A stretch of 64,000 nucleotides of DNA, taken from positions 496,001 to 560,000 of the forward strand of contig NZ_CP147020.1 in the NCBI RefSeq assembly GCF_037126435.1, given 5' to 3'. The stretch is from Bernardetia sp. ABR2-2B (GTDB lineage Bacteria > Bacteroidota > Bacteroidia > Cytophagales > Bernardetiaceae). Shown here piece after piece: positions 4,292-39,406 of the stretch (within the stretch, counting starts at the first letter, position 1; the number at the start of each line of letters is the position of its first letter). Under the pieces are notes generated by a model that was not told where the DNA came from, ran no database searches, and saw only the letters and a list, made by a program, of their open reading frames with translations. Made by a program: the position numbers and the translations under genes.

Positions 4292-7200
4292 TTACTCCAC
4301 CAAAACTACCAAATCATCTTGTTCTACCATCGAACCACTTGCTAAAACAACTTTTTTAACTGTTCCTGCTTTTGGTGTGCTGACAGTAGTTTCCATTTTC
4401 ATGGCTTCAATTACAAAAAGAGAATCTCCAGCTTTTATTTTATCGCCTTCTTTTACCAAAACTTCAGCTATTTTCCCTTGAAGTGGCGAACCTACTTCTC
4501 CGTCTTCGGTAGCACTTGCTTTTTGATTAGAAATTTTTGTGATTTTCAAACTCTTATCCAACACTCTGACACGACGAATTTGTCCATTCATATCAAAAGT
4601 AACTGTTTTCATTCCGTCTTCATCAGCTTGACTGATAGAACGAAGCTTTACAATAAGCGTTTTTCCTTCTGCAATATCTATCATAATTTCTTCATTGGGC
4701 TGAATGCCGTAAAAGAAAATCTTGGTAGGTAGAATAGAAACATCTCCATACTGCTGAACCGTATTATAAAAATCTGTAAATACTTTTGGATATAATAAAT
4801 AAGAAAGCAAATCTAATTCGTTTGCATTTTTAAATTCCTTCTTAAATACTTTCCATTCCTTTTCCCAGTCAATTGGTTCTAAATGTGCATTTGGACGCTC
4901 TGTAAAAGGCTTTTCTTTTTTAAGAATCATTTTTTGAATCTTCTTTGGAAATCCTCCTTGTGGTTGTCCCAAATCTCCACGCATCATATCTTTTATTGAT
5001 TCTGGAAAAGACATTGTAGCACCTCTTTCCAAAATATCAGCCTTTGTATAACCGTTTGCCGTCATAAAAAGTGCAAAATCTCCTATTACTTTTGAACTTG
5101 GCGTAACTTTTACCAAATCTCCAAAAAGCTCATTGGCAACAGCATAATTTTTCTTTACATCTTGAAATTTATCTCCCAAACCTAATGATTCAGCTTGAGG
5201 ACGAAGATTTGAATATTGCCCTCCTGGTATTTCGTGTTCGTAAACTTCTGCCGTTCCTGCCTTCAAATCTGATTCAAAAGGATAATAATATTCTCTTACA
5301 TCTTCCCAATAATTAGAAAAAGAATTGAGTTTTGGTAAATAAATTTTCTGCTCACGCTCATGTCCTTGCAATACGGCTGCCATTGAGTTGAAAGAAGGTT
5401 GAGAAGTCAGACCAGACATAGAAGCCAACGCAACATCTACCACATCGACACCTGCTTCAATCGCCTTCAAATAGGTAGCTGATTGAATAGAAGAAGTGTC
5501 ATGCGTATGCAAATGAATTGGAATTTGTACAGTTTCTTTTAGCTTTGAAATTAATAATTCGGCTGCATAAGGGCGAAGAAGTCCTGCCATATCTTTTATT
5601 GCCAAAATATGCGCTCCTTCATCTTCTAGTTTTTTAGCTAAATCTAAATAATACTCTAAATTGTATTTTCCTTTTGGGTTTGTAATAATATCACCAGTAT
5701 AACAAATACAAGCCTCTGCCAACGAATTTGTATGTTTTCGAATCGTTTTGATACTTACTTTCATTGCTTCGACCCAATTCAAAGAATCGAAAACACGGAA
5801 AATATCAATTCCGTTTTGAGATGCTTCTTCAATAAATTTAATTACCAAATTATCAGGATAAGCCTTATAGCCTACTGCATTTGAGCCACGAAGCAACATT
5901 TGTAATAGAATATTTGGTGCAGCTTTTCGGATATTTTTTAGTCTCTCCCAAGGGTCTTCGTGTAAGAAACGCATCGAAACATCAAAGGTAGCACCTCCCC
6001 ACATTTCTAAAGAAAATACTTCTGGATGATTTTTGGCAAAACTCTCCGTTACTTCAAGCATATCATACGGACGAACACGAGTAGCCAAAAGCGACTGATG
6101 AGCATCTCTCAAAGTTGTATCTGTGTAATGAATAGCTTTGTCTTTTTTGAGCCATTTACAAAAATCTTCTCTTCCTAATTTGTTGAGCTTATCTTTTGTT
6201 CCTTTTGGAAACTTATCTTGATATTTTTTATCAAACTTTGGGATTTTTGGAATCCTAAAAGTTGCATTTGGATTCAATTTCTTTACACTTTCATTTCCAT
6301 TAACAGTAGTTTCTGCAATATAACGAAGGATTTTTGTTCCTCTATCAAAACGACGAGGCATTTCAAAAAGCTCTGGATAATTATCAATAAACTTAACTGT
6401 CGCTTCTCCTTTTTGGAATGTTGGATGCGAAATTACGTTCAATAGAAAGTCAATATTTGTTTTTACTCCTCTAATTCTGAACTCTCTCAAGGCACGGTGC
6501 AAACGAACAGCAGCTCCCCAAAGTGTACGTCCTTTTGCTGAGACTTTGATAAGCATTGGGTCAAAAAATGGCGAAATTCGTGCGCCTGTATAACAATTTC
6601 CTGCATCAAGACGAATTCCATATCCATCAGCAGAACGGTAAGCGACAATCAGACCAAAATCAGGTTTAAAATTATTAGCTGGGTCTTCTGTTGTGATACG
6701 ACACTGAATAGCAAAACCATTGCAAGGAACATCAGCTTGACTATGAATATAAATACGTTTGTCGGTAAGTGGATAACCTTGTGCAATCAGAATTTGGGTA
6801 CGGACAATATCAATTCCTGTAACTTCTTCGGTAATAGTATGCTCAACTTGTACTCTTGGGTTTACTTCAATAAAATAAATATTTTCCTCTGCATCTACCA
6901 AAAACTCAACCGTTCCGACATTATTATATTTTACTTCTTTTGCAATCGATAAAGCATAATCATAAAGCGCATATTTTGTAGGCTGTGAAAGTGTAAGACT
7001 TGGCGCAACCTCTACTACCTTTTGAAAACGACGCTGAACAGAACAATCACGCTCAAACAAATGAACCATTCTTCCATAATTATCAGCCATTATCTGCACT
7101 TCGATGTGCTTCGGATTGTCGATATATTTTTCTAAGAAAATTCTATCATCATTAAATGCTTTTTTGGCTTCACTTTTTGCTTCTTTGAATGATTTTATGA

Positions 7201-17105: not shown

Positions 17106-18122
17106 ATGACTTTAATAAAAAAGAAAAAAATAATCTATCCTATCAATGAACCATTGCGTAAATTTTTGATAGAATATAAAAAAGAAATTGATATTCCTGT
17201 TTCATACTCCGACCTTTCTCGTTATAACAGTTCTATAAATTTGTATGACAAAAAAGGAGAAGATACCCTTTGGCTAACTGTTTTTTATGCCTCAGAAGAT
17301 ATGAGAGAAATTTATCATGGCTTAAAGAAAATTTATGCTATGCTAAAAGCAGATGGCGACCTTTCGGTAATGGAACATTTGTATATCGATAGAGTAGATT
17401 TGTGTTCGTATGGAAATACAAAGCCATTTCGTATCAGAATCGTAAATCAAATCAATGATAATTTTGATTATTATTATATCAAACAAGCTGATGCTTCTCG
17501 TGTCTATGGATTAGAATTGGAAGATATGATTTCGCCCAATAGAATAAATTATCTTGTTCATAATCAAACACTTATAGAAGAACATATTGCAGGAATACCA
17601 GGGTATCAGTTTATAAAAGAAAGATTAGAAGATTTAGAATTTAATAAAATTCGTTTGGCAAAAGAGTTTGTAAAGTTTAATGAGCGTTGTTTTGTTCGTC
17701 TTTTGGGAGATATGCATTCCAATAATTTTGTGATTGATATTACACCTGATTTTGAGGAAGTACATTATCGAATCCGTGCCATAGATTTTGACCAGCAGTC
17801 TTTTGAAGGGCGTAGAATTGTTTATATGCCTCAATATTTCAAAGAAAATAATCCGATTATTCAGTTGGGAATTGATATGATGACACCAGAAACTGTTCAG
17901 CAGTATCAAAAAGAAGAGCGTTCACTTATGGCACAACGAATAAAAGCATCGTTACATTCAGTAAAAGATTTATTAAAAGCGATGCGAAAAGAACCTATTT
18001 CGCCAAAAGAAAATGTAATTCAGCTTAGAGAGGAACTAGCTGACTTTTATAAAAACGATAAATTTTTGAAAGCAAGAAATATGGGAAGTGTTTTGCAAAC
18101 TAGCTTGGAAATGCTTTTTTAA
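17106..18122 (+). CDS. Kinase-fold protein (APH/HipA-like catalytic motifs), unknown substrate
   Basis: 338 residues, soluble. The C-terminal half carries LLGDMHSNNFVID (about 199-212) and, some 20 residues later, RAIDFDQQSF: the spacing and residues match the catalytic loop (D-x-H-x-x-N) and metal-binding D-F-D of aminoglycoside-phosphotransferase/HipA-type kinases. The N-terminal part contains YYYIKQADASRVYGLELEDM, possibly the lobe with the ATP-binding Lys. No close family recognised, so substrate (small molecule or protein) is open. ATG 17106. Its last 27 codons are duplicated in partial copies at 18665-18711 and 20541-20619, and it lacks its own terminator, which appears displaced to 20625; see findings. 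Confidence 0.7.
   Translation: MTLIKKKKIIYPINEPLRKFLIEYKKEIDIPVSYSDLSRYNSSINLYDKKGEDTLWLTVFYASEDMREIYHGLKKIYAMLKADGDLSVMEHLYIDRVDLCSYGNTKPFRIRIVNQINDNFDYYYIKQADASRVYGLELEDMISPNRINYLVHNQTLIEEHIAGIPGYQFIKERLEDLEFNKIRLAKEFVKFNERCFVRLLGDMHSNNFVIDITPDFEEVHYRIRAIDFDQQSFEGRRIVYMPQYFKENNPIIQLGIDMMTPETVQQYQKEERSLMAQRIKASLHSVKDLLKAMRKEPISPKENVIQLREELADFYKNDKFLKARNMGSVLQTSLEMLF
18051..18121 (+). repeat. 3'-end repeat, copy 1 (in the intact gene)
   Basis: End of the kinase-fold gene, encoding FYKNDKFLKARNMGSVLQTS LEMLF and TAA. Copy 2 (18665-18711) and copy 3 (20541-20619) repeat part or all of this segment in direct orientation. Confidence 0.8.
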
Positions 18123-18158
18123 AAGGTTTTGTTTGTTTGTATTAAAACTTATAGAAAG

Positions 18159-18668
18159 ATGATTAAAAATTTTGGAATGAAAGAAAGTATCTTTTTTCAT
18201 TTAACTTACGAGAAAGAAGAACATGAATTTGGTTTTCTTTCATTGATAATAAATAACGAAGAAATATTGAATTTAGAAGGAAATTTTAGTTTTTTATGTG
18301 TCGATTTGGAATGCTTCTATTATGATAATTCATCTGCATATAAAGACAATTTTTTCTGGCAGAAAACAGAGAAAGAAATTATTGAGTCTTGGAATTTATT
18401 CTTCAATTCTAGAACCTTGGAAGAAATAGATAGACCTGAAGTTTGGGCTTTTAATGATAACTTTTGTCGTGTTAAGTTGCCGTTAGATAGTACCTTCTTT
18501 GATGAGTTTGTTTTTATAGGTTACAGAGATGATGAAGGCTTCTTTCATATCAAAATGTGGGAAAAATTTAATGCTCAATATGTCAAGGATTATAGTGTCT
18601 CATTTGAGGAGTTTAAGAAATTAGCTAACGAAATAAGTGAGTTTTTAAGAATTGAAATTTTAGATTAG
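18159..18668 (+). CDS. Unknown soluble acidic protein (cargo of the 3'-end hot spot)
   Basis: Begins at ATG 18159 or 18177 (a TTG frame opens at 18129); 169 or 163 residues, acidic, aromatic-rich, no signal or membrane segment. Visible stretches: FGFLSLIINNEEILNLEG, SFLCVDLECFYYDN, PEVWAFNDNFCRVKLPL, FEEFKKLANEISEFLRI. The size, acidity and central W/F-rich beta pattern recall bacterial immunity proteins against polymorphic toxins, but I cannot assign a family. It lies between copy 1 and copy 2 of the kinase gene 3'-end repeat, so it is probably acquired cargo. Confidence 0.6.
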   Translation: MIKNFGMKESIFFHLTYEKEEHEFGFLSLIINNEEILNLEGNFSFLCVDLECFYYDNSSAYKDNFFWQKTEKEIIESWNLFFNSRTLEEIDRPEVWAFNDNFCRVKLPLDSTFFDEFVFIGYRDDEGFFHIKMWEKFNAQYVKDYSVSFEEFKKLANEISEFLRIEILD

Positions 18669-18711
18669 AAATATCAAAGGGTTTACAAACTAGCTTGGAA
18701 ATGCTTTTTTG
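18665..18711 (+). repeat. 3'-end repeat, copy 2
   Basis: CAAACTAGCTTGGAAATGCT followed by TTTTT (from 18686) is identical to copy 1; AGAAATAT further left also matches, with a shortened middle. In the original frame it would read LQTSLEMLF and then TGA. No gene of its own. Confidence 0.75.
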
Positions 18712-18728
18712 AATTAAAAAATCAAAAT

Positions 18729-19067
18729 ATGAGAAATAGAGTAATAGTAGTTCCATTTAATAAAGAAGAGGAAGAAAAGTTAGAATACGGTGGTTTTGAT
18801 GATTTGAAACTCATAACCTTAGATATTGTGCAGTTTGACATAGATTATTTATGTCATTCTCAAATATTAGATTCCATAAGTGAAATTAGTGGTGTCATGA
18901 TTGACGATTATGAGATAGAAGCCATATATGATAAAAATTCTTTAGAAAAATCATTAGCCTTTCTTGAAGATTTTAATTCACTGAGAAAATGGTCATTAGT
19001 AGAAAAATTAATTGCTTTATTTAGGGAAGCTATAAACAGAAATACAGGAATTCATTTTATTTTTTGA
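18729..19067 (+). CDS. Unknown small acidic protein
   Basis: 112 residues from ATG 18729, no signal peptide. Starts RNRVIVVPFNKEEEEKLEYG, followed by DLKLITLDIVQFDIDYLCHS and a helical C-terminus (RKWSLVEKLIALFREAINR). Not recognised. It lies 18 bp after copy 2 of the kinase 3'-end repeat and 41 bp before a secreted-protein gene on the same strand, so it may be co-transcribed with it. Possibly an immunity-like or accessory protein; this is only a guess from size and context. Confidence 0.55.
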   Translation: MRNRVIVVPFNKEEEEKLEYGGFDDLKLITLDIVQFDIDYLCHSQILDSISEISGVMIDDYEIEAIYDKNSLEKSLAFLEDFNSLRKWSLVEKLIALFREAINRNTGIHFIF

Positions 19068-19108
19068 GAAAAAACATTCAACTTATCACAAGATAATATT
19101 TCAAAACC

Positions 19109-20539
19109 ATGTTCCTCATCCGTATTATTTTATCCATTTTATTTTTGACTATTTCTAACTTTGTATTAGCCAATGGAGGTTCTATTGATGGTAGTAGATT
19201 CAAAAAAACAGGTAATATCAGGCTATTACAAAATGCTGATATTGAGCTTGTAAAGGAAGATTTATTTATAAAAGTAATAAATGACACAACATTTTTTGAA
19301 GTTCATTATTTTTTGAAGAACAACGGAAAAACACAACAAGTACATTATGGATTTCCTATAGATTTGTACGCTGGTGGATTAGGAACAGATGATTATGGAG
19401 TTCCATTTTATATTGTACCTTATTACGATTTCAGAAAATACGTACCTTACTTTGAACCTTATTTTAATGGAAAACATGAAGAAATAGTTTTTTGGAAACA
19501 AGAAAAAGCATATAAAGCAAATGTCTATGAAGGAGCTAGTCCTTATAGAAATGAGATAGTAAAAGATGTTCCAGTAGATAGATTATGGTATGCTTTAAAA
19601 TTAGACTTTGAAAAAGATAGTACACAAGAACTGACAATAAAGTATGCTGTTTTGAATAGAAAAGTAGGTCGTCATGGAGGAGATATGGGTTTTCTTCCTC
19701 GTACCACAAAACGTTACTTTGTATATGATTTATTTCCTTCAAGTAGTTGGTCAGATGGAATTGTTGGAAACTTTTCTTTAAAAATAGATTTATCAGACCT
19801 AAAAAGCCACGATTGCGAATATAAAATAGAAGGTTTAGAAAATCTTGATAAGAATGAAAATGAGATTTATAGTTTTAAGCAAGAAGATTTTGATTTAAAA
19901 AAACGCTCTTATATTGGAGTTACTTATGACAATACTAGACGATTTAATGCTTGGTTTTGGCAAAGGTATGGTGTAGGAGTAGCAGCAATAGACTCTGTTG
20001 CTTCTTCAGCTGAGAATGCAAATTATTTGATAGATAATAATCCAAATACAGTTTGGAAAGGCAAAGAAGGAGACTGGATAAAGATTTTTACTAAAAAAAG
20101 AGTTGAAACATCTATGATAAGACATAGAGAATATAAATATTATATTTTACCTAAAGGTATTGTTTTCTTGAATGGCGATTACTCTTCCAAAGAAGCATTT
20201 GACGAAAATGGACAAATAAAATCAATGTATATGAAGGCGAATAACATACAGATAAAAGAACCAAATAGATTTTTAAAAAATGACACCTTACGTATTCATC
20301 GTAAATTACTTCATTTACCTCCTTCACACTATTTCTTAGAAGGAAATGATATTTATGAAGTTTTAGAAAGTCCGACTAGATATAGTTTTTTCTATATTCC
20401 TATGTATAGTTCAGCAAGTATCAGCTACGACACATTTTTTGAAGTCATAGAAATTCAAGTAGCAAAATCTACAGACTCAACAAAAGAAATATCTATTTCT
20501 GATTTGTATGTTTTTGGAGAATGGAGGTATGTAAAGTGA
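19109..20539 (+). CDS. Secreted protein with NADase-type glycan-binding (discoidin-like) domain
   Basis: 476 residues; signal peptide (IILSILFLTISNFVLA, cut before NGGS). The N-terminal half, including NADIELVKEDLFIKVINDTT FFEVHYFLKN (broken for length), looks like a DUF4424-type beta domain. The C-terminal part has SSAENANYLIDNNPNTVWKG ...DWIKIF and ends ISDLYVFGEW, the pattern of the discoidin-like NADase-type glycan-binding fold. No catalytic motif or T9SS tail. Its stop TGA (20537) abuts copy 3 of the kinase 3'-end repeat. Probably periplasmic or surface-exposed glycan binder; assignment of both domains is by eye. Confidence 0.6.
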   Translation: MFLIRIILSILFLTISNFVLANGGSIDGSRFKKTGNIRLLQNADIELVKEDLFIKVINDTTFFEVHYFLKNNGKTQQVHYGFPIDLYAGGLGTDDYGVPFYIVPYYDFRKYVPYFEPYFNGKHEEIVFWKQEKAYKANVYEGASPYRNEIVKDVPVDRLWYALKLDFEKDSTQELTIKYAVLNRKVGRHGGDMGFLPRTTKRYFVYDLFPSSSWSDGIVGNFSLKIDLSDLKSHDCEYKIEGLENLDKNENEIYSFKQEDFDLKKRSYIGVTYDNTRRFNAWFWQRYGVGVAAIDSVASSAENANYLIDNNPNTVWKGKEGDWIKIFTKKRVETSMIRHREYKYYILPKGIVFLNGDYSSKEAFDENGQIKSMYMKANNIQIKEPNRFLKNDTLRIHRKLLHLPPSHYFLEGNDIYEVLESPTRYSFFYIPMYSSASISYDTFFEVIEIQVAKSTDSTKEISISDLYVFGEWRYVK

Positions 20540-20540
20540 T

Positions 20541-20619
20541 TTTTTATAAAAATGATAAGTTTTTGAAAGCTAGAAATATGGGAGGAGTTTTACAGGCTAG
20601 TTTGGAAATGCTTTTTTAG
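20541..20619 (+). repeat. 3'-end repeat, copy 3, possibly the displaced original gene end
   Basis: About 87% identical to copy 1 over 79 bp, and in frame it reads FYKNDKFLKARNMGGVLQAS LEMLF, then TAG. Most differences are synonymous (AAC/AAT, AAA/AAG, GCA/GCT, TTG/TTA, CAA/CAG, AGC/AGT), so both copies diverged as coding DNA. No start codon or gene body precedes it. Followed directly by a terminator. Confidence 0.78.
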
Positions 20620-20624
20620 ATAAA

Positions 20625-20662
20625 AAGTAGGCTCAAAAAAAACCTCTGAACCTACTTATATT
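20625..20662. terminator. Bidirectional terminator
   Basis: AAGTAGGCTCA / TGAACCTACTT (20625-20635, 20647-20657) with one mismatch, then ATATTTTT. It lies 6 bp after copy 3 and 1 bp from the asd stop, serving both converging units. It would be the natural terminator of the kinase-fold gene before insertion. Confidence 0.65.
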
Positions 20663-20663
20663 T

Positions 20664-21677
20664 TTATACTGTTTCTACTTTCAATAAATTTTCTTTTACT
20701 AAATACTCAGCAATCTGAACAGCATTTGTGGCAGCCCCCTTACGCAGGTTATCAGCTACAACCCACATGTTGAGGGTATTTTTCTGACTTTCATCTCTTC
20801 TAAGTCTTCCTACAAAAACCTCATCTTTTCCTTCTGAATTTATCGGCATTGGATATTCAAACTTACTTACATCATCTTGTAAAATAATTCCTTCTGAATT
20901 TTTCAGAATTTCACGTACTTCATTCAAATCAAAGTCATTTTCGAACTCTACGTTGATAGCTTCTGAATGTCCTCCCATAGTTGGAATACGGACAGCCGTT
21001 GCCGTAACTTGTATAGAATCATCACTCATAATTTTCTTAGTCTCCAAAATCATTTTCATTTCCTCTTTCGTATAGCCATTTTCTAAGAAAACATCGATAT
21101 GAGGAAGAACGTTTAAATCGATAGGATGAGGATATACTTTATTTCCTGCTTCTCCTTTTCGTTCGCTCATCAACTGATCAACGGCAGCTTTTCCAGTTCC
21201 TGTAACAGATTGATAGGTCGAAACAACAACACGTTTGATTTTATATTTTGTGTGTAATGGATTGAGAGCCACTACCATTTGAATGGTTGAGCAGTTTGGA
21301 TTTGCAATTATTTTATCATTTTCATTTAAGTCATGAAGTTCGTGTGCGTTTACCTCTGGGACAACTAATTTATAATTGGGGTTCATTCTCCAAGCTGAAG
21401 AATTATCAATAACTATTGTTCCTTTTTCTGCAAATTTGGGTGCAAACTCTAAAGAAACTGAACCTCCAGCCGAAAAAATAGCAACATCAGGAACAGCATC
21501 GATAGCTTCTTGCATACTGTGTACACGATATGACTTTCCATCAAATTCAATTTTATTTCCTACCGAACGCTCTGAAGCAACAGCAATAAGTTCAGAGATA
21601 GGAAATTTACGATTTTTCAAAACTTGTAACATTTGAGTTCCTACAAGTCCAGTAGCTCCTACAACAGCAATTTTCAT
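20664..21677 (-). CDS. asd: Aspartate-semialdehyde dehydrogenase
   Basis: NADPH-dependent enzyme (337 aa) making aspartate semialdehyde from aspartyl phosphate, the branch point to lysine/diaminopimelate, threonine and methionine. Visible: nucleotide-binding VAVVGATGLVGTQMLQVL-like N-terminus (KIAVVGATGLVGTQML), active-site IIANPNCSTIQ (Cys about 127), and C-terminal MGGHSEAINVEF with the catalytic His. Length is normal. Monocistronic: the neighbouring T9SS gene on the same strand ends in its own terminator 130 bp upstream. Confidence 0.96.
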   Translation of the reverse strand: MKIAVVGATGLVGTQMLQVLKNRKFPISELIAVASERSVGNKIEFDGKSYRVHSMQEAIDAVPDVAIFSAGGSVSLEFAPKFAEKGTIVIDNSSAWRMNPNYKLVVPEVNAHELHDLNENDKIIANPNCSTIQMVVALNPLHTKYKIKRVVVSTYQSVTGTGKAAVDQLMSERKGEAGNKVYPHPIDLNVLPHIDVFLENGYTKEEMKMILETKKIMSDDSIQVTATAVRIPTMGGHSEAINVEFENDFDLNEVREILKNSEGIILQDDVSKFEYPMPINSEGKDEVFVGRLRRDESQKNTLNMWVVADNLRKGAATNAVQIAEYLVKENLLKVETV

Positions 21678-34358: not shown

Positions 34359-34475
34359 CAAACTAGATATTTTTTGGACAGATATAACCAAAATCGGACA
34401 TTTGGAAAACAAAAAACCCTGCTTAGATTAATTATCTAAACAGGGTTTTGAGATTGGATTGTAAACCCGACAGGA
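34359..34475 (-). repeat. Left copy of a 117-bp direct repeat with a truncated tRNA-Arg tail
   Basis: Matches 39000-39114 (about 85% identical with small gaps), ending with the terminator stem CCCTG-TTAGAT / ATCTAA-CAGGG and then the last 14 nt of tRNA-Arg (TAAACCCGACAGGA; the intact gene has TGAACCCGACAGGA, one difference). The match stops abruptly at 34475, inside the T-arm, so no functional tRNA remains. Read on the minus strand it is a tRNA 3' end plus its terminator. Confidence 0.8.
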
Positions 34476-38999: not shown

Positions 39000-39114
39000 C
39001 AAACTAGACAGTTTTTGGGTCAAGTGTAACCAAAAATGGACATTTGGAAAAACAAAAAAACCTGTTTAGATAGTCTAAACAGGGTTTTGAGATTGGATTG
39101 TGAACCCGACAGGA
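39000..39114 (-). repeat. Right copy of the 117-bp direct repeat
   Basis: Contains the tRNA-Arg terminator hairpin CTGTTTAGA / TCTAAACAG (39062-39070, 39074-39082) and the 3' 14 nt of the intact tRNA at 39101. Left copy at 34359-34475. Together they bracket the 1358-aa gene in direct orientation. Confidence 0.8.
39055..39090. terminator. Bidirectional terminator of tRNA-Arg and the 1358-aa gene
   Basis: Stem CTGTTTAGA / TCTAAACAG extended by an A-run on the left and GGGTTTT on the right, so it has a U-tract in both directions. It closes the minus-strand tRNA and probably the plus-strand T9SS gene ending at 38939. Confidence 0.65.
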
Positions 39115-39174
39115 GTCAAACCTGTAACCTCTACAGCCGTAATGTAGTGCTCTATTCAATTGAGCTACGAGTCC
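39101..39174 (-). tRNA. tRNA-Arg (anticodon ACG), proximal copy
   Basis: 74-nt cloverleaf on the minus strand: acceptor GGACTCG / CGGGTTC with discriminator A; D-arm GCTC...GAGC; anticodon arm CTACA-TTACGGC-TGTAG with ACG at 34-36; variable loop AGGTT; T-arm ACAGG-TTTGACT-CCTGT. CCA is not encoded. Identical to the copy at 39333-39406; the pair is probably co-transcribed. Confidence 0.95.
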
Positions 39175-39332
39175 ATTTATTTAACTAATTCGTTTACTTT
39201 AAAAAACGAATGCAATTACAATTTGTTTATTAATCTGTAATTATTTACAAAACTACTCAAAATATAAAATAGTTCCAAAATTAATTTTATGTAGTTGCCA
39301 ATATTTCTATTGGCAACTTATCATAAAACTTG

Positions 39333-39406
39333 TGAACCCGACAGGAGTCAAACCTGTAACCTCTACAGCCGTAATGTAGTGCTCTATTCAATTGAGCTAC
39401 GAGTCC
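39333..39406 (-). tRNA. tRNA-Arg (anticodon ACG), distal copy
   Basis: Identical in all 74 positions to the tRNA at 39101-39174, same strand, 158 bp upstream in transcription order. The spacer has no gene. Tandem duplication of a tRNA-Arg(ACG) gene; position 34 A would be deaminated to inosine by TadA. Confidence 0.95.

What the first reader, a model, noticed from the sequence alone, without database searches (positions are those of the whole stretch)
17106..20657. 3' end of a kinase-fold gene used repeatedly as an insertion point
The last codons of the kinase-fold gene occur three times in direct orientation: in the gene (ending TAA), at 18665-18711 (ending TGA) and at 20541-20619 (ending TAG). 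Copy 3 differs from copy 1 mostly at synonymous sites and is followed by the only terminator. This fits a model in which incoming DNA brought its own gene end, restoring the gene and pushing the original end to copy 3, and did so at least twice. The cargo is an unknown acidic gene (segment 1) and an acidic gene plus a secreted glycan-binding protein (segment 2). No integrase is visible in the cargo. This could be a compact, integrase-free cassette hot spot not described before; polyimmunity-like accumulation is an alternative.
Basis: partly seen in the sequence, partly recalled or inferred. Interest (0 to 1): 0.75.

Follow-up and report, generated by a model that had tools for sequence, protein, structure and literature searches.

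The report
Stacked gene cargo behind kinase-fold gene
Behind one conserved kinase-like gene, a bacterium has piled up at least two small foreign gene inserts, one of them probably an immunity gene against rival toxins, each leaving a scrap of the old gene end behind; the pattern looks like known sloppy DNA import, but at an unusual, non-toxin gene.

Summary
The 3' end of a conserved kinase-fold gene (kin, 17106-18122) recurs in direct orientation after c1 (18682-18712, 25 nt exact) and after c3 (20541-20619, 87%). Of 647 genes in 960 kb of this genome, kin is the only non-paralogous one whose end recurs downstream, and 95 other kin loci lack any clear repeat.

The copies look like displaced ends of functional kin alleles. 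All 10 bases in which copy 3 differs from copy 1 occur in working kin genes of sister species. G002 carries c2 directly behind kin, collinear with copy 2 + c2, so c1 entered between them. G003 carries a c3 relative directly behind kin. Two sister-species pairs differ by cargo at exactly this point. A c2 homologue elsewhere overlaps an RHS toxin gene, so c2 is probably an orphan immunity gene.

Best reading: nested one-sided import anchored in kin, with microhomology joining (homology-facilitated illegitimate recombination), newest cargo next to kin, as proposed for Vibrio immunity arrays.

Not supported: a general hot spot with a shared boundary. No empty site was found, the terminator is asd's, kin-asd adjacency is itself a rearrangement of this species, and neighbour turnover is high everywhere (33/83). 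New variant of a known kind.

The parts
17106..18122 (+). kin: conserved 338-aa kinase-fold gene, anchor of the inserts
   Evidence: 88-97% identical in six sister species, 53-68% in more distant relatives; AlphaFold/Foldseek kinase hits; no Pfam family over cut-off
18045..18122 (+). copy 1: 3' end of the intact kin gene (stop TAA)
18159..18668 (+). c1: 169-aa acidic ORFan cargo gene (longer start possible at 18129); its stop TAG may come from the displaced kin end
   Evidence: no convincing homologue in 395 class genomes, 19 relatives or plasmids; GC 27.4%
18682..18712 (+). copy 2: displaced kin end (25 nt exact, stop TGA); possible degenerate extension from about 18665
   Evidence: copy 2 + c2 align collinearly at 92% with the kin end + c2 of sister species G002
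18729..19067 (+). c2: 112-aa cargo gene, probable orphan immunity gene
   Evidence: 93% identical protein directly behind kin in G002; 29% identical homologue overlaps the 3' end of an RHS gene in G112
19109..20539 (+). c3: 476-aa secreted-type protein with a weak NADase-type glycan-binding domain match
   Evidence: 74-75% identical protein directly behind kin in G003, paralogues elsewhere in the genus
20541..20619 (+). copy 3: displaced kin end, 87-88% identical to copy 1, stop TAG
   Evidence: all 10 differences are found in functional kin genes of sister species, none private
20625..20657 (-). terminator hairpin of asd (also usable from the + side)
   Evidence: a hairpin at the same place behind asd in all six sister species
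20664..21677 (-). asd, aspartate-semialdehyde dehydrogenase, right flank
   Evidence: not next to kin in any sister species

Best explanation
Nested, one-sided import of DNA from related bacteria. Incoming DNA carrying kin plus a cargo gene behind it pairs by homology inside kin. Its other end, which has no homology, is joined by a few matching bases to the recipient's kin close to the stop codon. Each event gives an intact kin, the new cargo directly behind it, and the recipient's old kin end as a scar behind the cargo. Order inferred here: kin/copy 3/asd; then c3 and c2 (together or in two steps) in front of copy 3; then c1 in front of copy 2. The newest cargo is next to kin. Cargo is kept where it protects: c2 is probably an immunity gene for a toxin of rivals. 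Shown: the copies, the allele-like copy 3, collinearity of copy 2 + c2 with G002, single cargos behind kin in sister species. Inferred: import by transformation, the microhomology joints, the order of events, the use of c1 and c3.
For: Copy 3 has no private base: 10 of 10 differences from copy 1 occur in working kin genes of sister species, and 6 of 8 changed codons are silent where about 16% would be expected by chance. Kin end + c2 in G002 aligns through the intergenic gap with copy 2 + c2, so c1 is a later insert. A c3 relative stands directly behind kin in G003: donors with the required kin-cargo layout exist. Sister pairs G002/G006 and G004/G001 differ by cargo starting at the kin stop. 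Scar lengths differ (about 31-48 and 79-83 nt), as expected from end joining and not from a fixed att site. No recombinase among the cargo proteins. ComEC in this genome and DprA in all seven genomes of the genus. The same model was published for Vibrio immunity arrays, including a displaced 3' end (PMC5361080).
Against: No donor sequence is known for c1, so its joint cannot be read base by base. ComEC and DprA are near-universal and do not show competence. It is not explained why both scars fall in the last 83 nt of kin. No scar is certain between c2 and c3 (only TTTTTTGA at the c2 stop). Homology-facilitated illegitimate recombination is described as rare (PMC5361080).
Confidence: 0.55

Rival explanations
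1. Two-step version: a circle or fragment with kin and cargo integrates by a single homologous crossover, giving two complete kin genes around the cargo; later deletions remove most of the redundant kin, leaving only its 3' end.
For: Gives the same final anatomy; also explains allele-like copy 3.
Against: No genome searched holds two full kin genes; it needs an independent large deletion after each event, both stopping within 83 nt of the kin stop.
Confidence: 0.2
2. Site-specific insertion: the kin 3' end is the attachment site of small cassettes moved by an integrase encoded elsewhere.
For: Direct repeats of a gene 3' end that restore the gene are the classical mark of such elements; 25-nt identical core in copies 1 and 2.
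Against: No integrase in the cargo; no clear kin-end repeat in 95 other kin loci; core found only at kin in sister species; scars start at different positions.
Confidence: 0.1
3. Old tandem duplication inside this genome of the kin end and what follows, then decay.
For: Tandem paralogue arrays are common in this genome.
Against: Copy 3 shows no private bases and a silent-site bias, so it diverged as part of a working gene in another lineage; the cargos are unrelated to each other; c2 and c3 stand singly behind kin in other species.
Confidence: 0.07
4. In addition to the import mechanism, the locus is a true insertion hot spot of the genus that takes up cargo more often than other gene ends.
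For: Five different right-hand neighbourhoods among seven species and two cargo differences between sister species.
Against: 3' neighbours of genes in general changed in 33 of 83 cases between this genome and its near relative G002, so the turnover is not clearly above background.
Confidence: 0.2

Closest known systems
Vibrio cholerae T6SS orphan-immunity arrays formed by sequential displacement (PMC5361080)
   Same: Homologous anchor upstream, new module inserted next to it, older immunity genes and a displaced 3' end shifted back; no integrase; homology-facilitated illegitimate recombination proposed; intermediates found in other strains.
   Different: Anchor there is a T6SS effector region; here it is a conserved kinase-fold gene with no known toxin link. 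Only one of the cargos has an immunity-type context, and no effector is present.
[quoted passage not shown]
   Same: Co-oriented short genes, at least one probable orphan immunity gene, repeated sequence between genes, same phylum.
   Different: No tyrosine recombinase; the repeats are pieces of the neighbouring gene's end, not conserved intergenic motifs; three cargo genes only.
Integrative elements and islands at gene 3' ends (general knowledge)
   Same: Incoming DNA restores the gene end and leaves the old end downstream.
   Different: No integrase, no constant core border, no such repeat at this gene in 95 other loci.
Orphan CdiA-CT/CdiI and RHS tip arrays (general knowledge; cited in PMC5361080)
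   Same: Displaced gene ends and immunity genes accumulate behind a conserved 5' part.
   Different: The conserved part is not a toxin and stays intact; nothing of a toxin is present here.

Membership tests
Immunity array by sequential displacement (Vibrio T6SS type) | Displaced 3' ends of the anchor gene behind newer inserts | tested here: met
   copies 2 and 3
Immunity array by sequential displacement (Vibrio T6SS type) | Simpler intermediate arrangements in other strains | tested here: met
   kin-c2 in G002, kin-c3 in G003
Immunity array by sequential displacement (Vibrio T6SS type) | Cargo consists of immunity genes with cognate effectors elsewhere | tested here: inconclusive
   c2 homologue overlaps an RHS gene; c1 is an ORFan, c3 has no immunity evidence
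Immunity array by sequential displacement (Vibrio T6SS type) | Anchor is a T6SS effector or delivery gene | tested here: not met
   kin is a widely conserved kinase-fold gene, no toxin-family match
rAID | Tyrosine recombinase at the head of the array | tested here: not met
   recO and kin precede the array; no recombinase among the array proteins
rAID | Array of co-oriented short orphan immunity genes | tested here: inconclusive
   three co-oriented genes, one with immunity-type context
Integron | Integrase gene beside the array and attC hairpin behind each cassette | tested here: not met
   no integrase in the array; intervening sequences are kin-end pieces
Integrase-driven element at a gene 3' end | Integrase in the element | tested here: not met
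Integrase-driven element at a gene 3' end | Constant att core with fixed border | tested here: not met
   scars of about 31-48 and 79-83 nt
Integrase-driven element at a gene 3' end | Excision as a circle | not testable with these tools
   needs PCR or sequencing reads

The most novel reading that the evidence does not exclude
A compact, integrase-free cassette site at a housekeeping-type gene: kin's 3' end acts as a repeatable docking sequence in this lineage (perhaps through recurrent breaks there), stacking defence genes last-in-first, with older cassettes still exchangeable through the kin-end repeats.
Probability: 0.12. Interest if true: 0.75.

Novelty: new variant of a known kind. Interest (0 to 1): 0.42.

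Why it matters
If right, it shows a readable, layered record of sloppy homologous import behind an ordinary conserved gene, not a toxin locus. Any conserved gene could then serve as an anchor for collecting orphan immunity genes, and displaced gene ends could be used as a genome-wide scar to count and date such events. It also gives clean junctions for testing how often such import happens in a phylum where transformation is little studied.

Tried and rejected
Chance repeat: rejected. Tandem complete kin genes: none found. Other gene-end scars in 960 kb of this genome and 220 kb of G002: none like kin's; only tandem paralogues, repeated intergenic hairpins and REP-like repeats. Kin-end repeats in 95 other loci: none clear. 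A degenerate kin end 75 nt behind c2 in G002 (CAAACTTTATATGCTTTTTT): this spacing pattern occurs nowhere else in 2.36 Mb of strand except at kin and its copies, but it was found by eye, is not significant in a general alignment test, and its 11-mers are not rare; kept as a lead. c1 hits to peptide deformylases at E 0.001-0.006: judged spurious. c1 structure: pLDDT 39, not usable, so not searched. PADLOC: no match. tRNA as attachment site: none near. c2 in plasmids: no match. Searches failed for formal reasons.

Full report
What is there. The window lies at 496001-560000 of the main contig of a 5.4 Mb genome. The gene kin (17106-18122) encodes 338 aa. It matches no Pfam or NCBIfam family over cut-off, has relatives in hundreds of genomes of the phylum, and its AlphaFold model (pLDDT 82) has only kinases among its top PDB matches, at low TM-scores. 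Behind it stand c1, c2 and c3 in the same direction, then asd in the opposite direction.

The repeats are real. Copy 1 (18045-18122) is the end of kin. Copy 2 has a 25-nt exact match at 18686-18710 and is secure from 18682; its extension to 18665 is only suggestive. Copy 3 (20541-20619) is 87-88% identical. The core occurs without mismatch only at these three places in the genome, and at most once, at kin, in each sister species (G004 has two mismatches). Among 647 genes of 960 kb of this genome, only kin and two tandem-paralogue genes have a 20-mer of their last 80 nt again within 4 kb downstream.

The copies are displaced alleles, not decayed duplicates. Copy 3 differs from copy 1 at 10 of 78 sites, and each of its bases is found at the same site in the working kin gene of at least one sister species; there is no private base. 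Six of eight changed codons are silent, against 16% of random changes. The copy therefore diverged while it was the end of a working gene in another lineage and was displaced recently.

The cargos stand alone elsewhere. In G002, c2 (93% identical protein) follows kin directly, and the DNA from the kin end through the gap into c2 aligns at 92% with copy 2 + c2 of the window. Hence copy 2 is the kin end that once stood in front of c2, and c1 was put between later. In G003 a c3 relative (74-75%) follows kin directly. The close pair G002/G006 differs by c2 versus an unrelated 140-aa gene between kin and the same downstream gene, and the pair G004/G001 by no cargo versus three genes; in both pairs the difference starts at the kin stop. 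c1 has no convincing homologue.

What the cargo may be. A c2 homologue in another family (G112, 29% identity over the whole length) starts within the stop codon of a gene with an RHS core domain (TIGR03696, E 2e-19) and a variable C-terminal end. This is the usual layout of a toxin and its immunity gene, so c2 is probably an orphan immunity gene. In another genome (L251) a c2 homologue lies among small uncharacterised genes. c3 has a signal-peptide-like start, read directly from its sequence, and a weak match to an NADase-type glycan-binding domain; its paralogues form tandem groups elsewhere. The function of c1 and c3 stays open.

What is not supported. The expected empty site was not found: in all six sister species asd has a SnoaL-like gene at its 3' side, is not near kin (142 kb away in G002), and has its own terminator at the same spot. 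In this genome the SnoaL-like gene is 90 kb away from asd, and the alignment with G002 breaks exactly after copy 3. The kin-asd joint is thus a rearrangement of this species, and the terminator is asd's. Most sister species have a different chromosome part behind kin, but neighbours change often in this genus: 33 of 83 genes had a different 3' neighbour in G002. A special hot spot is therefore only weakly supported. No kin-end repeat is clear in 95 other loci.

Mechanism. One-sided import explains the anatomy best: homologous pairing in kin on the left, illegitimate joining on the right within the recipient's kin tail. It predicts an intact kin, the newest cargo next to kin, and scars of different length; the first and third are seen, and the second fits the G002 comparison. 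c3 ends with a TGA, and c1 perhaps with a TAG, that lie at the left border of the kin-derived scars, which would fit joints at short matches around the stop codons (inference). ComEC is encoded in this genome and DprA in all seven genomes of the genus, which permits but does not show transformation. Kirchberger and colleagues proposed the same process for Vibrio T6SS immunity arrays, with a displaced 3' end and intermediates in other strains (PMC5361080). rAID arrays of Bacteroidales look similar but are defined by a tyrosine recombinase (PMC12247911), which is absent here.

Verdict. The reading as repeated insertion behind kin is supported in outline, the reading as an undescribed general hot spot is not. 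This is a new variant of a known kind: displacement-type stacking of cargo, anchored in a conserved non-toxin gene.

Noticed in passing
G000 contig C1 681628-685545, 740466-742080, 1018203-1021882, 1156127-1157184, 1293638-1295494; G002 C1 4453086-4457367: Several tandem arrays of 240-310-aa paralogues that share a strongly conserved first ~200 bp and diverge behind it.
   Followed up: partly
G000 contig C1 490585-493298 (L100, before the window): The same ~50-nt hairpin (CCTTAGAATTACTTTTTGTAAATCTAAGG) occurs three times between small genes; a similar doubled hairpin flanks one gene in G002 at 4609113/4609986. Could be repeated terminators flanking inserted genes.
   Followed up: partly
L027 (oriented with kin) just behind kin, and L030 behind its 346-aa cargo gene: G005 carries, right behind kin, a terminator plus the last codons of a gene that is complete in G001 behind its kin cargo: another displaced gene end at the same locus.
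   Followed up: partly
L026 (reverse-complemented) 5032-5051: CAAACTTTATATGCTTTTTT, a possible degenerate kin end 75 nt behind c2 in G002; its spacing pattern is unique in 2.36 Mb of strand but it was found by eye.
   Followed up: partly
window 39100-39406: Two tRNA-Arg(acg) genes 232 bp apart, with a 119-nt repeat pair at 34359-34475 and 39000-39114.
   Followed up: no
G000 C1 426243 versus 516620; 467861/467978: Rearrangement joints against G002 fall at the 3' ends of convergent genes (asd, SnoaL-like gene, mscS-like gene).
   Followed up: partly
L248 107-1839: RHS-core gene with a variable C-terminal end overlapping a c2 homologue: candidate toxin-immunity pair without Pfam match.
   Followed up: partly
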